The notes beneath the pieces are model-generated. The model was not told where the DNA came from. It ran no database searches and was given only the letters and a program-made list of their open reading frames with translations. Source: Melioribacteraceae bacterium (GTDB taxonomy: Bacteria; Bacteroidota; Ignavibacteria; Ignavibacteriales; Melioribacteraceae). From it: a DNA stretch of 64,000 nucleotides. Shown here one piece after another: positions 5,013 through 9,863 of the stretch (position 1 is its first letter; the number at the start of each line of letters is the position of its first letter). The position numbers and the translations under genes are program-made. The DNA is taken from NCBI GenBank assembly GCA_021740785.1, contig JAIOZI010000001.1, positions 1 through 64,000 of the forward strand, read 5' to 3'.

Positions 5013-7412
5013 TTGATTATTTCTCTTAATTGGTTGAATGAATATGTGGATATCAGTGACTTCTCAGTCGATGATATAGTTGACAAACTTACGTATGCCG
5101 GATTGGAAGTTGAGGATATTAAAGACTATAAAAAACAGTTCGAAAATTTTGTAGTCGGTTACGTTAAAGAGAAAAAGAAACATCCTAATGCTGATAAACT
5201 ATCTTTATGTATAGTTAATAACGGCAATGAGGATATTAATGTAATATGCGGCGCACCGAATGTTGAAGAAGGACAAAAAATTGCATTCGCAAAAGTTGGT
5301 GCGGTAATACCTGAAAATGGTTTCAAACTTTCAAAAGTGAAGATTCGCGGAGAATATTCATCCGGTATGATCTGCTCGGAGAAGGAATTGAATATTAGTG
5401 AAAATCATGATGGCATAATGGTTTTAGATCCTTCATTAAAAGAAGGTACAGAGCTTGCATCTGCATTGGGTATGGATGATACAATTTTAGATATCGCCAT
5501 TACACCAAACAGGCAGGATGCTTTAAGCCATGTTGGTATTGCACGGGATTTGGCTGCGATGTATGATCGCGAATTGAAAATGCCGAAGTTCGAATTTGCC
5601 GAAGACCAAAGAAAAGCCGATGACTTTGCTTCCGTAGCAATTGAGAATTCTGAAGATTGCCCGCGCTATGCAGCCAAAGTTGTTCTTGAAGTTGAAGTTA
5701 AAGATTCTCCCGGTTGGTTAAAGCAAAAGTTGATAAGTATTGGTTCACGCCCAATAAATAATATTGTTGATGTAACAAATTTTGTTCTGCACGAGCTTGG
5801 TCAACCGCTCCATGCATTTGATCTGGATAAACTTGCCGATCAGAAGATTGTTGTGAAAAGTGCGGGAGAGCAGACATCATTTATGACTCTCGACAGTAAA
5901 GAGAGAAAATTGCTCCCGACTGATTTAATGATTTGCGACGGTCAAAAATCAGTAGCCATTGCCGGTGTAATGGGCGGGGAGAACTCGGAAGTTACAACTG
6001 AAACAAAAAATATATTGATTGAAAGCGCTTTCTTCAATCCTGCATCGATAAGAAAAACAGCAAAACATTTAGGATTATCAACAGATGCTTCATACAGATT
6101 TGAACGCGGTACTGATCCTGAAATAGTTGTTTTAGCGGCAGAAAGAGCTGCGCAGTTGATTGCTGAATTATCCGGCGGTAAAATTCTAAATGGTACAATC
6201 GATCAATACCCGGATAAAATTCAGCATAGAAAAGTTAAACTAAGATACTTACGTATAACGAAAATCTTAGGTTATGAAATCCCGAATGAAGAGGTAAAAC
6301 GAATACTTTCAAATTTATCTCTAGAGATAATCGATGGTGATGAAAATGAAATTATGGTTGATGTTCCGCCCTTTAGACATGATATTGAAAGAGAGATAGA
6401 TCTTATTGAAGAAGTTGCAAGAATTTACGGATATGAAAATATTCCTGATGTACAAAAAATATCGATCACGCTCGATAAAACAATTGATCAGTCACAGTAT
6501 AAAGATGAATTGAGAAATCATCTTACAGGTATGGGGTTTTATGAAATTATAACCAATTCATTATTGTCTGAAGAGACCGCACAAAAATTTGGAAGCGCTA
6601 TCACAATATTAAATCCACAGAGCACTGAAATGGCGAATACACGTCCGTCTCTCTTGCCCGGTACTCTCGGCACTATAGCGCGCAACCTAAATGTTAAGCA
6701 GCCGAATCTTTCTCTATTTGAAATCGGCAACACATTTATAAAGAAAAATGAAGTAATAAAATCATTTGATGATATTGAAGAATCAACTCATCTCCTTTTA
6801 TCAATCACGGGAAAAGTTAATGTGGATCAGTGGTATACGAGTGAAAGAGAAGTGGACTTTTTTGATCTGAAGGGTTTTGTAAATGAACTGCTTCGAAAAA
6901 TATCCCTTGACAATGTTCTTGTAGATTCATATTATCATAACAATAGTTTGTATCTCGATTATTCACTTACCAAAAGTTATGATGGGAACGTCATTGCCGA
7001 AGGCGGTAAGGTAAAAAAAGAAGTTCTGCAGTTATTTGATATCGATCAGGATGTATTTGTATTTGATATTAATATTGATTTATTGAAAAAAATTCCGACA
7101 ACTCAGAAGGTTTATTCTGAACCGTTAAAATACCCAAAAGTTGTTCGGGATTTAGCATTTATAATTGATAATAATATCGACAGCGCAAAGGTAATTGAAG
7201 TCGTTACAAAGAGCAGTTCTAAATTATTGAAAAATATAAAGTTATTCGATATCTTTGAAAGCGACAGTTTAGGTAAAGGGAAAAAGAGTCTTGCTTTTGA
7301 ACTCGAATATTATGATGAAAGCAAAACACTAACTGAAGAAGAAGTAGAAAAAGAATTTTGGAAAAGTATCAAAGCAGTTGAATCAGAATTAAAAGCTAAG
7401 TTAAGAGGATAA
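5013..7412 (+). CDS. pheT: Phenylalanyl-tRNA synthetase beta subunit
   Basis: The 799-residue beta subunit starts at TTG 5013 after a GAGGTG site. In order: the N-terminal MIISLNWLNEYV segment, a tRNA-binding OB fold (about 40-150), the B3/B4 editing domain (including RPINNIVDVTNFV and GVMGGENSEV), the B5 domain (about 400-480), and a C-terminal FDX-ACB anticodon-binding domain (about 705-799, starting YPKVVRDLAFII). Length and architecture are standard. Confidence 0.97.
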   Translation: MIISLNWLNEYVDISDFSVDDIVDKLTYAGLEVEDIKDYKKQFENFVVGYVKEKKKHPNADKLSLCIVNNGNEDINVICGAPNVEEGQKIAFAKVGAVIPENGFKLSKVKIRGEYSSGMICSEKELNISENHDGIMVLDPSLKEGTELASALGMDDTILDIAITPNRQDALSHVGIARDLAAMYDRELKMPKFEFAEDQRKADDFASVAIENSEDCPRYAAKVVLEVEVKDSPGWLKQKLISIGSRPINNIVDVTNFVLHELGQPLHAFDLDKLADQKIVVKSAGEQTSFMTLDSKERKLLPTDLMICDGQKSVAIAGVMGGENSEVTTETKNILIESAFFNPASIRKTAKHLGLSTDASYRFERGTDPEIVVLAAERAAQLIAELSGGKILNGTIDQYPDKIQHRKVKLRYLRITKILGYEIPNEEVKRILSNLSLEIIDGDENEIMVDVPPFRHDIEREIDLIEEVARIYGYENIPDVQKISITLDKTIDQSQYKDELRNHLTGMGFYEIITNSLLSEETAQKFGSAITILNPQSTEMANTRPSLLPGTLGTIARNLNVKQPNLSLFEIGNTFIKKNEVIKSFDDIEESTHLLLSITGKVNVDQWYTSEREVDFFDLKGFVNELLRKISLDNVLVDSYYHNNSLYLDYSLTKSYDGNVIAEGGKVKKEVLQLFDIDQDVFVFDINIDLLKKIPTTQKVYSEPLKYPKVVRDLAFIIDNNIDSAKVIEVVTKSSSKLLKNIKLFDIFESDSLGKGKKSLAFELEYYDESKTLTEEEVEKEFWKSIKAVESELKAKLRG

Positions 7413-7413
7413 T

Positions 7414-7731
7414 TTGCCGGACATTACAAAGAAGTACGATTTTTTTATGACTGAAATTTCATCTTTGGAAAAGCAAATTTATGTTCATCTTCAGAAGTTT
7501 GAAGAAATTAAGGAAACAAACAAAAAATTAAAAGCAACAGTTGACCAACTTAGAAAAGAAAATGAGGCGCTGTTACTTAAACAAGAAGAATTAGAAAGCA
7601 AGTTAAAAGAAAAATTTTTGGATCTGGAAGATATTAACGCAATTAATTCTTTGGATCCGGGAGAGAAGGAAAAAATAAAAAGTAAGATAAACGATTTTAT
7701 TTCTAGAATCGATTATCATTTAGGTTCTTAA
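7414..7731 (+). CDS. Coiled-coil protein, ZapB-like
   Basis: A 105-residue, mostly helical protein starting at TTG 7414, one base after the pheT stop, with AAGAGGA as ribosome-binding site. Residues about 15-75 form a charged heptad-like coiled coil (KETNKKLKATVDQLRKENEA). The position just before zapA suggests a partner of ZapA at the division ring, like ZapB. Sequence alone cannot prove this because coiled coils look alike. Confidence 0.7.
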   Translation: MPDITKKYDFFMTEISSLEKQIYVHLQKFEEIKETNKKLKATVDQLRKENEALLLKQEELESKLKEKFLDLEDINAINSLDPGEKEKIKSKINDFISRIDYHLGS

Positions 7732-7762
7732 TTTAATGAAGGTATGTTGAAGTAGACACAAA

Positions 7763-8062
7763 ATGACTGAAAAAAAGAAGCTGAAAATTAAAATTTTTGA
7801 TAAAGAATATTCCCTTCTAGTAGAAGATGAAGAAATAGCTGCGGAATTGGCGAAGTACGTGAACAGTATAATGGAAGATACTAGGGATGAACTGCCGGAT
7901 CAACCATACGAAACAGTGGCAATAATAGCTGCATTAAACGTAGCATATGATCTTTTTGTTGAAAAAAATAATTTCCGGGAATTTAGTATTCAAGCCACAG
8001 ATAAAATCAAAAAAATAAAGCTTCTTCTTAACGACCCAGAATCAGTGTCCGCTTCTTCATAA
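7763..8062 (+). CDS. zapA: Cell division protein ZapA
   Basis: This 99-residue protein has the ZapA pattern: a short beta segment (LKIKIFDKEYSLLVEDEE), then a helix with AAELAKYVNSIMEDTR, and a second helix (VAIIAALNVAYDLF) that would form the dimer coiled coil. ZapA bundles FtsZ filaments at midcell. It sits upstream of a structured RNA candidate and rny. Confidence 0.88.
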   Translation: MTEKKKLKIKIFDKEYSLLVEDEEIAAELAKYVNSIMEDTRDELPDQPYETVAIIAALNVAYDLFVEKNNFREFSIQATDKIKKIKLLLNDPESVSASS

Positions 8063-8069
8063 GGTTTAG

Positions 8070-8267
8070 CCGCTCGGTCAATTCTTTACTCTAATTGAAG
8101 AACTATAGTAAAACAAGCCAGGGTTATCGACTTACAGCGTGTATTACAGGCCTCAACCCGCGCAAACGGGAGTCAATATTATTTTGACCGGTGGACGTAA
8201 AAAGCGTTGGGCGGTTTCCCGCACTGTCAGAGGAGGTTCTTCATGACAGGCGAATTGACCGGTGCGG
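8070..8267 (+). ncRNA. Structured RNA candidate between zapA and rny, possibly 6S RNA
   Basis: About 198 bases are closed by a long-range stem: 8070-8084 pairs with 8252-8267 almost perfectly (CGGTCAATTC against GAATTGACCG plus CCGC/GCGG). Several short hairpins lie inside: TTTACT/AGTAAA, TACA/TGTA, CCCG/CGGG, GTCAA/TTGAC, GCGG/CCGC and CTGTCA/TGACAG. Size, terminal closing stem and the place after zapA agree with 6S RNA, which binds RNA polymerase. The many internal hairpins are less typical, so an rny leader element is also possible. A short open frame across it is not convincing. Confidence 0.5.
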
Positions 8268-8300
8268 ATTATATATATTTATTGCTTATATGGAGGAAAA

Positions 8301-9863
8301 ATGGACATTGTGCTAATTGTCCCGATTGCTTTAGGTTTATCCGTAGTGATGTTCTTTTTAGGCTGGTTAATAAATTCCAAAATGGGAAGTTCAAGTATTG
8401 CACGGGCTAAAGAGGAGTCTTCGCGTATTATTGAAAATGCTGAAAAAGAAGCAAAAAGTATCAAGAGAGAAAAACTGCTCGAAGTAAAGGATGAATGGTT
8501 TAAGAAGAAACAAGATTTTGATGGTGAAGTAAATAGTAAGCGGCAGAAATTACAAAACTACGAGAAACAGCTAGAATCCCGGGAAGAGAACATCGAGAAA
8601 AAGTATGACCTTGTTCTTCAAAAAGAAAAAGAGAACAAGATTTCGGAAAAACAGATTCAGATTGAACAGGAAGACATCAAAAAGAAACAAACCGAGTTAG
8701 AAAGATTAATCTATGAGCAGAATGTAAGACTTGAGAAAACAGCCGCTTTAACTGCCGAAGAAGCTAAAAATATGCTTATGGAAAACATGACACACAAAGC
8801 TAAATCGGATGCTGCACAATACATTAAAGAAATAAGAGATAAAGCTAAAGTTGAAGCCAAGAAAGAAGCTCAGAAAATTATTGTTCAGTCCATTCAAAAA
8901 ACTGCTGTTGATCACTCTGTCGAAACAACAGTTTCAGTGGTTCAAATTCAGAATGACGAAATGAAAGGTCGTATTATTGGACGCGAAGGTCGCAACATAC
9001 GTGCATTCGAAGCCGCTACAGGTGTTGACGTAATTGTTGATGATACTCCTGAAGCTGTAATTTTATCAGCATTCGATCAATTTAGAAGAGAAGTTGCCAG
9101 GCTGGCTCTCGAACGATTGATTGCAGACGGTAGAATTCACCCAGCTCGTATTGAAGAAGTTGTTCAGAAAGTTCAGGAAGAGGTTGAAGAAGAAATTATA
9201 AAAGAAGGTGAAAATGCAGTTATTCAACTCGGGCTTCATGGAATTCACCCTGAATTAATTAAAGGTATCGGTAAAATGAAATACCGATCAAGCTATGGGC
9301 AAAATTTGCTTCAGCACAGCATAGAAGTTGCATATATGACCGGGTTTATGGCAGGTGAATTAGGTTTTGATGTGAATATTGCAAAAAAAGCCGGATTAAT
9401 GCACGATATCGGTAAGACGGTAGATAAAAATATTGAAGGTCCGCATGCACTTTTAGGATATGATTTAGCAAAGAAATATAATGAAAATCCGATTGTTGTT
9501 AATGCCATCGGAAGTCACCACGAAGATATTGAAATGGAACATCCGATATCAGCTTTAGTTCAAGCGGCTGATGCCATAAGCGGAGCACGACCCGGAGCAC
9601 GACGCGAGCCGCTCGAAAGTTATGTTAAACGTCTTGAAAATTTAGAAAATCTTGCAAAATCTTTTGAAGGAGTTGCTAAAACTTATGCCATTCAAGCCGG
9701 AAGAGAAATTCGTGTAGTGGTTGAACCGGATAAAATTGATGATAATTATTCGGATCAACTTGCTTTTGATATTGCTCAAAAAATCCAGGAAGAAATGGAA
9801 TACCCGGGGCAGGTTAAAGTTATGGTGATCAGGGAAGTCCGTAAAATAGCTTATGCAAAATAA
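8301..9863 (+). CDS. rny: Ribonuclease Y
   Basis: A membrane-anchored endoribonuclease that starts decay of many mRNAs. From ATG 8301, after GGAGG at 8292-8296, the protein has 520 residues, matching the family. The order is an N-terminal membrane helix (about 3-23), a long charged coiled coil (about 30-190), a KH RNA-binding domain (MKGRIIGREGRNIRAFEAAT), and an HD hydrolase domain (HSIEVAYMTGF, then GLMHDIGK). The frame opens further upstream (8262), but that extension lies in the RNA element and has no good ribosome-binding site. Confidence 0.96.
   Translation: MDIVLIVPIALGLSVVMFFLGWLINSKMGSSSIARAKEESSRIIENAEKEAKSIKREKLLEVKDEWFKKKQDFDGEVNSKRQKLQNYEKQLESREENIEKKYDLVLQKEKENKISEKQIQIEQEDIKKKQTELERLIYEQNVRLEKTAALTAEEAKNMLMENMTHKAKSDAAQYIKEIRDKAKVEAKKEAQKIIVQSIQKTAVDHSVETTVSVVQIQNDEMKGRIIGREGRNIRAFEAATGVDVIVDDTPEAVILSAFDQFRREVARLALERLIADGRIHPARIEEVVQKVQEEVEEEIIKEGENAVIQLGLHGIHPELIKGIGKMKYRSSYGQNLLQHSIEVAYMTGFMAGELGFDVNIAKKAGLMHDIGKTVDKNIEGPHALLGYDLAKKYNENPIVVNAIGSHHEDIEMEHPISALVQAADAISGARPGARREPLESYVKRLENLENLAKSFEGVAKTYAIQAGREIRVVVEPDKIDDNYSDQLAFDIAQKIQEEMEYPGQVKVMVIREVRKIAYAK

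What the first reader, a model, noticed from the sequence alone, without database searches (positions are those of the whole stretch)
8070..8267. Structured RNA between zapA and rny
A near-perfect 15-base closing stem joins the two ends of a 198-base stretch, with several internal hairpins. It may be 6S RNA, which would place a global RNA polymerase regulator beside the RNase that could degrade it, or a leader that controls rny. I cannot decide by eye.
Basis: partly seen in the sequence, partly recalled or inferred. Interest (0 to 1): 0.55.

Follow-up and report, generated by a model that had tools for sequence, protein, structure and literature searches.

The report
Divergent 6S RNA between zapA and rny
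The stretch between two genes of this environmental bacterium most likely encodes a diverged copy of 6S RNA, a well-known RNA that holds RNA polymerase in check, which the standard RNA library misses here; it looks like an ordinary but unlisted member of a known family.

Summary
Window 8070-8267 (+) is a compact structured RNA in the 238-bp zapA-rny gap. Fourteen closing pairs join its ends, and 0 of 200 shuffles fold as well. The family model R1 finds it in 75 of 75 family loci, and 11 of 12 closing-stem pairs show changes on both sides.

It is most likely 6S RNA. Rfam's 6S model does not see the window copy (E>10). But in 57 family genomes its only four hits, full length and below cut-off, all lie in this gap. 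In the phylum 61 of 296 genomes have sub-cut-off 6S hits; all 30 loci returned are zapA-RNA-rny, and R1 finds the same spot in all 30. E. coli ssrS also directly follows zapA. No other strong candidate exists in the genome.

An rny leader is unlikely: in 4 of 40 phylum loci the RNA follows zapA without rny.

Two features stand out: a 3' central-bubble hairpin competing with the AAGAAC:GUUCUU helix, as in E. coli-type 6S release, and a forked tip. Polymerase binding, pRNAs and transcript ends are inferred. Known kind, modest interest.

The parts
7763..8062 (+). zapA, the gene directly upstream
   Evidence: Pfam PF05164 ZapA, E 2.2e-13
8070..8267 (+). 6S RNA homologue, closing stem to closing stem
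   Evidence: R1 hit 155.2 bits, E 5.8e-36 in the own genome (R1 was built with this sequence); covariation; 6S identity through relatives
8070..8084 (+). closing stem, 5' strand (P1)
   Evidence: 11 of 12 modelled pairs with changes on both sides in 64 sequences
8252..8267 (+). closing stem, 3' strand (P1)
   Evidence: as above
8098..8103 (+). AAGAAC, 5' strand of the helix beside the central bubble (P2); predicted pRNA template region
   Evidence: conserved in the alignment; aligned to the 6S helix CuGAgCC/GGuUCaA by RF00013 in relatives; pRNA role inferred
8236..8241 (+). GUUCUU, 3' strand of P2, shared with the alternative hairpin
   Evidence: P2 fully paired in 53 of 63 sequences; G-C to A-U in 3 of 64; not formed in the window's own minimum-energy fold
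8104..8120 (+). 5' side of the central bubble
   Evidence: unpaired in the consensus; position by RF00013 alignments of relatives
8121..8220 (+). apical arm, GGG 8121-8123 with CCC 8218-8220, with conserved cores 8139-8154 and 8191-8205
   Evidence: helices 4-7, 90-100% of cells paired
8157..8188 (+). forked tip: two adjacent hairpins 8157-8170 and 8172-8188
   Evidence: two hairpins in 61 of 63 sequences
8224..8249 (+). hairpin of the 3' central bubble that competes with P2 for the CUU of GUUCUU
   Evidence: -12.4 kcal/mol in the window; arm-swap test 0 of 200; 0 of 500
8292..8296 (+). GGAGG ribosome-binding site of rny, 24 nt beyond the closing stem
   Evidence: sequence; an in-frame start with GGAG before it in 73 of 73 family loci
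8301..9863 (+). rny (RNase Y), downstream neighbour
   Evidence: Pfam RNase_Y_N, KH_1, HD

Best explanation
The stretch encodes the 6S RNA of an Ignavibacteriales bacterium (probably Melioribacteraceae), too diverged for Rfam's 6S model. Shown here: a conserved, covarying RNA on the + strand, one strong copy in this genome, with a closing stem, an AAGAAC:GUUCUU helix, a central bubble and an apical arm in 6S order, placed directly after zapA. Inferred from the 6S family: it mimics an open promoter and binds RNA polymerase with its housekeeping sigma factor; when nutrients return the polymerase copies a short pRNA off the strand that holds AAGAAC; this frees GUUCUU, whose CUU end joins the 3' central-bubble hairpin, and the RNA is released. 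It is probably cut or terminated out of a zapA-6S-rny transcript; no transcript data were available.
For: RF00013 over 57 family genomes: 4 hits at E<=1, all four in the zapA-rny gap over the full model. Phylum: 61 of 296 genomes hit at E<=0.1, three of them among 11 genomes of the same order outside the family; 30 of 30 returned loci are zapA-RNA-rny on one strand; best scores 42.3, 40.8, 40.8, with RF00013 the only family at that place among 4227. Reverse test: R1, built from the window's family, hits the same place in 30 of 30. R1 strand bias: 155 bits on + for the window; the best opposite-strand match among 95 loci is 30.6 bits. Covariation. zapA linkage in E. coli and in beta/gamma-proteobacteria (passages of PMC7641849). 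No other 6S candidate in the genome: RF00013 none at E<=10, R1 next best 20.4 bits. 3' bubble hairpin.
Against: RF00013 does not detect the window copy at E<=10, and no relative in 296 genomes passes the cut-off. Only 3 of 10 family loci scanned one more time show RF00013. R1 does not detect E. coli ssrS. Weak RF00013 hits can be chance: at E<=10 the control set rings in an archaeon. The window's minimum-energy fold has the 3' hairpin, not the AAGAAC:GUUCUU helix. No promoter or terminator was recognised. Swap and shuffle tests do not correct for relatedness.
Confidence: 0.92

Rival explanations
1. A cis-acting leader of rny (attenuator, riboswitch or RNase Y autoregulatory site) rather than a free RNA.
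For: In 73 of 73 family loci with both genes the gap to rny is 208-264 bp, and 35 of 40 phylum loci have rny next.
Against: In 4 of 40 phylum loci the RNA follows zapA but the next gene is CcmF (twice), a YmdB-like gene or a SnoaL-like gene. The ribosome-binding site is outside the fold. The architecture is that of 6S. It does not exclude an added effect on rny.
Confidence: 0.04
2. A structured RNA of an unknown class that only resembles 6S.
For: No Rfam family reaches its cut-off, and the window copy does not match 6S at all; strongly conserved unpaired blocks and a forked tip.
Against: The 6S model, run genome-wide, lands only in this gap in the family (4 of 4 hits) and here in 30 of 30 returned phylum loci, full length; zapA linkage as in E. 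coli.
Confidence: 0.03
3. An Ms1-like RNA that binds the RNA polymerase core enzyme instead of the sigma-bound enzyme.
For: Ms1 is described as structurally related to 6S (abstract and passages of PMC9130861).
Against: Ms1 is described there for Actinobacteria with other neighbours; the Rfam hits of the relatives are to 6S alone; zapA linkage is a 6S trait. Binding was not tested.
Confidence: 0.01

Closest known systems
6S / SsrS RNA, Rfam RF00013 (E. coli ssrS)
   Same: Order of closing stem, P2 helix, central bubble, apical arm; conserved GCC...GGAAG and CCCAC blocks in the alignments of relatives; gene directly after zapA on the same strand; a 3' bubble hairpin using the 3' strand of P2, as described for E. 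coli in passages of PMC8876501.
   Different: Below the model's cut-off in all 296 phylum genomes searched and undetected in the window; forked tip with two hairpins in 61 of 63; followed by rny, whereas fau follows in E. coli.
6S-Flavo RNA, Rfam RF01685
   Same: A 6S type reported for Bacteroidetes (passages of PMC2864571).
   Different: Its 108-position model finds only one weak place in this genome, on another contig (24 bits, cut-off 85, E 0.97); no match at the window locus.
Bacillus subtilis 6S-1 / Aquifex 6S release type
   Same: A 3' bubble hairpin may exist already in the free RNA, as described for B. subtilis 6S-1 (passages of PMC8876501); the window's fold has it.
   Different: Those use a central-bubble collapse helix (same passages); I did not test for one here.
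Ms1 RNA of Actinobacteria
   Same: 6S-like structure and an RNA polymerase partner (abstract and passages of PMC9130861).
   Different: Other phylum and other neighbours; binds the core enzyme.

Membership tests
6S RNA (RF00013) | Score at or above Rfam's gathering cut-off (46.4 bits) | tested here: not met
   Window: no match at E<=10. Family best 29.2 bits, phylum best 42.3 bits, 0 of 296 over cut-off. This is a score limit of one model, not a biological feature; I therefore call it a homologue, not an Rfam-grade member.
6S RNA (RF00013) | Full-length alignment to the 6S architecture in orthologues at the same locus | tested here: met
   Model positions 1-187 in 4 of 4 family hits and in the four phylum loci aligned; some weaker phylum hits cover only 37-150
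6S RNA (RF00013) | Long closing stem joining the RNA's two ends | tested here: met
   11 of 12 pairs with changes on both sides, 64 sequences
6S RNA (RF00013) | Central bubble flanked by P2 helix and apical arm | tested here: met
   P2 fully paired in 53 of 63, apical helices 90-100% of cells paired; but only one of six P2 pairs covaries, and P2 is absent from the window's minimum-energy fold
6S RNA (RF00013) | Binds RNA polymerase with the housekeeping sigma factor | not testable with these tools
   needs pull-down
6S RNA (RF00013) | Template for short pRNAs that release it | not testable with these tools
   needs in vitro transcription or small-RNA sequencing; the competing 3' hairpin is consistent
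6S RNA (RF00013) | Discrete stable transcript near 200 nt | not testable with these tools
   no RNA-seq available; no terminator-like site, promoter-like sites near the chance number
6S RNA (RF00013) | Gene next to zapA, as in beta/gamma-proteobacteria (a lineage trait, not universal) | tested here: met
   75 of 75 family loci, 39 of 40 phylum loci, E. coli
6S-Flavo (RF01685) | Match to its covariance model at this locus | tested here: not met
   one weak place elsewhere in the genome only (24 bits)
rny leader | Found only upstream of rny | tested here: not met
   4 of 40 phylum loci have the RNA after zapA and another gene next

The most novel reading that the evidence does not exclude
The zapA-6S-rny order is a working unit: RNase Y cuts the shared transcript to free 6S RNA, so the amounts of 6S RNA and RNase Y are tied in a loop, and 6S abundance reports RNase Y activity. 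In addition this lineage uses an E. coli-type release hairpin outside the gamma-proteobacteria and a forked tip on the 6S RNA.
Probability: 0.15. Interest if true: 0.55.

Novelty: new member of a known kind. Interest (0 to 1): 0.35.

Why it matters
It points to a phylum-scale blind spot: none of 296 phylum genomes passes Rfam's 6S cut-off, while R1 finds a copy in 84 of 296 (by handles apparently the same sample). A 6S gene directly after zapA both in E. coli and in this phylum suggests an old gene pair. The family alignment gives a concrete, testable prediction of the pRNA template strand and the release hairpin; named relatives in the pattern search include Melioribacter and Ignavibacterium, some of which are in culture (recalled).

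Tried and rejected
Direct Rfam scans of the window gave nothing for 6S; weak matches to other families there (HgcE, mcrA, RCNMV_TE_DR1, GlsR6; 9.7-12.5 bits, E 4-6.1) were dropped as chance. R1 against the E. coli zapA-ssrS locus failed, so the link to E. coli rests on RF00013 and on synteny. I first read AAGAAC and GUUCUU as a kissing pair of loops; the RF00013 alignments place them as the nested helix beside the central bubble, with the hairpin as its alternative. Promoter-like sites in 7700-8400 (3 found, 2.3 expected) and terminator-like sites (0 found) gave nothing.

A first split of the sequences by pattern failed for 71 of 73; the corrected one failed for one, L038, so the arm and tip tests used 63 of the 64 non-redundant sequences. 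MAFFT shifts the GUUCUU columns in several rows of A1, so P2 counts are slightly off; one search counts P2 by anchor instead. Not examined: the 4 of 79 family genomes without a ZapA hit; the 31 of 61 phylum RF00013 hits for which no locus was returned; 45 of the 84 R1 phylum hits (I took 39 of them plus one RF00013 hit, chosen over many families, for the 40 loci L140-L179; three of the 40, L155, L156 and L162, are the same places as L088, L089 and L082); whether rny lies elsewhere in the four genomes without it next door; and whether phylum genomes without an R1 hit lack 6S. In the 15 genomes that stand in both tables, the coordinates overlap in 15 of 15 by my reading. Some zapA calls rest on weak scores: E 0.15-0.55 in L091, L098 and L100, 0.17 in L172, 0.025 in L177, accepted for their place and strand. 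Wehner et al. 2014, a survey of 6S RNA, is not held; I know it only through citations.

Full report
Setting. The window lies on contig C34 of a 4.85-Mb, 115-contig assembly. A search for the RNA core in named genomes returned 66 stretches; by my reading their titles are Ignavibacteriales or Ignavibacteria/-ae, Ignavibacterium, Melioribacter, Melioribacteraceae, Stygiobacter, or unplaced 'Bacteroidetes bacterium' and 'bacterium' records. The family is thus probably Melioribacteraceae. The RNA sits between zapA (7763-8062; Pfam ZapA) and rny (8301-9863; RNase_Y_N, KH, HD), all on the + strand.

Observation. The two ends pair through 14 pairs around a small internal loop, and 0 of 200 shuffles of the 198-nt stretch fold as well (z -3.98). 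Rfam lists nothing over cut-off here; its only hits in the whole window are four tRNAs.

Conservation. Of 79 family genomes 75 have a ZapA hit. In 73 of these 75 loci rny follows; L005 and L036 run into a contig end. The gap from zapA stop to rny start is 208-264 bp, median 234, in 73 of 73. The family model R1 finds the RNA in 75 of 75 loci, two of them cut by the contig end; 64 of the 75 were used to build it. Conserved blocks are AAGAACUA, GGGUUAUUGACU, GCGUGUAUUACAGGCCUC, GUGGAAGUAAAAAGCG, GUUCUU and the closing stem. On 64 non-redundant sequences a 35-pair structure has 93.0% of cells paired and 22 pairs with changes on both sides (shuffles 10.9 +/- 1.6, 0 of 500; slid controls 7-14); 11 of the 12 closing-stem pairs have such changes. 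The shuffles do not correct for relatedness; the slid controls keep it. In AAGAAC:GUUCUU only the third pair changes on both sides (G-C to A-U in 3 sequences); the other five hardly vary and say little by themselves. The + strand is meant: the window scores 155.2 bits on +, and the best opposite-strand match among 95 loci is 30.6 bits.

Identity. Rfam's 6S model, run over 57 family genomes, gave four hits at E<=1 (29.2, 26, 21.9 and 19.5 bits; cut-off 46.4), each over the full model and each in the zapA-rny gap. A scan of those four loci against all 4227 families listed three matches at E<=1, all RF00013 at that place. Over 296 phylum genomes 61 had a hit at E<=0.1, none over cut-off. Loci were returned for 30 of the 61; all 30 are zapA-RNA-rny on one strand, judged by HMMs from the window's family, with three zapA scores weak (E 0.15-0.55). 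The reverse test agrees: R1 finds the same place in 30 of 30. Run over 296 phylum genomes, R1 hits 84, including 16 of 16 of the family (own genome counted) and 11 of 11 others of the order. In its own genome R1 gives 155.2 bits here and at most 20.4 elsewhere; RF00013 finds no candidate at all at E<=10. E. coli ssrS lies 41 bp after zapA on the same strand, and a 6S gene after zapA is described for beta- and gamma-proteobacteria (passages of PMC7641849).

Results against. RF00013 does not see the window copy at E<=10 even when given only 213 bases. R1 does not see E. coli ssrS. Of 10 family loci scanned separately only 3 show RF00013. At E<=10 the 6S model also rings in an archaeon of the control set, so a single weak hit would prove nothing; it is the recurrence at one syntenic place that counts. 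Membership therefore rests on a chain: from the window's family to relatives in the order and class (R1, 48.6-143.3 bits for the 20 such loci), and from relatives in order and phylum to 6S (36.9-42.3 bits for the best).

Not an rny leader. Of 40 phylum loci (39 from R1's hits, one from RF00013's), 39 have zapA upstream, 35 have zapA and rny, and 4 have zapA but another gene next: CcmF twice, a YmdB-like gene and a SnoaL-like gene; one partial R1 hit, L147, has neither. The RNA thus tracks zapA more closely than rny. The rny ribosome-binding site lies 24 nt beyond the fold. An added effect on rny is not excluded.

Mechanism. Passages of PMC8876501 say that in E. coli 6S RNA, pRNA synthesis opens the helix beside the central bubble and its 3' strand then forms an extended hairpin with the 3' bubble, whereas B. 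subtilis 6S-1 and A. aeolicus 6S use a 'collapse' helix. Here the 3' bubble and the CUU of GUUCUU form a hairpin (8224-8249 in the window, -12.4 kcal/mol). Of 63 sequences 50 have a fold of -3 kcal/mol or better in this segment, and in 43 the CUU lies in the 3' arm. Swapping left arms among sequences weakens the mean from -7.37 to -4.07 +/- 0.26 kcal/mol (0 of 200); a plain count of pairs shows a smaller effect in the same direction (6.68 vs 6.03 +/- 0.10 of 9; 0 of 500). P2 is fully paired in 53 of 63. The two compete for CUU, which fits an E. coli-type switch. The hairpin may already exist in the free RNA: the window's minimum-energy fold has it and lacks P2. The tip is forked, with two hairpins in 61 of 63, where the RF00013 alignments of relatives show a long insertion. 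Binding to RNA polymerase, pRNA synthesis, its start near 8104 and release from a longer transcript are inferred.

What is in print. '6S RNA' with 'Ignavibacteri' found no paper; '6S RNA' with 'zapA' and 'Bacteroidetes' found one, PMC7641849, whose 6S-zapA passages concern beta- and gamma-proteobacteria. In the listings of searches with 'RNase Y', 'Chlorobi' and 'ssrS/ygfA' (20, 15 and 10 papers listed of more found) I saw no title or abstract start on this arrangement. The library holds open-licence papers only. 6S RNA and pRNAs are reported for Bacteroides thetaiotaomicron (passages of PMC7366714), 6S RNA for a flavobacterium (one passage of PMC9723704) and the 6S-Flavo motif for Bacteroidetes (passages of PMC2864571).

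Verdict. Most likely a diverged but ordinary 6S RNA. What is worth noting is how completely the standard model misses it in this phylum and how firmly it stays with zapA.

Noticed in passing
window 7414-7731: A 105-aa coiled-coil-like frame just before zapA, with no Pfam family above its cut-off; by place it could be a ZapB-like partner (my reading). Similar small frames stand before zapA in L157, L159, L161 and L178.
   Followed up: partly
L157 and L178 (downstream of the RNA): In two phylum loci a CcmF-type cytochrome c assembly gene stands where rny usually is, after zapA and the RNA.
   Followed up: partly
L159:1182-2054 (-): A YmdB-like phosphoesterase gene stands where rny usually is; whether rny is lost or elsewhere in that genome was not tested.
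   Followed up: no
phylum search: Rfam's 6S model passes its cut-off in 0 of 296 phylum genomes, though 61 have sub-cut-off hits; genome annotations that use the cut-off would list no 6S RNA for them.
   Followed up: partly
L147: A partial R1 hit (model positions 25-172, 23.6 bits) with no zapA or rny found nearby: chance or a displaced gene.
   Followed up: no
window 5013-7412: The long frame before these genes reads like the beta subunit of phenylalanyl-tRNA synthetase (my reading of the translation, no family search); a similar frame stands upstream in L157, L159, L161 and L178, so the order may be pheT, small frame, zapA, 6S.
   Followed up: no
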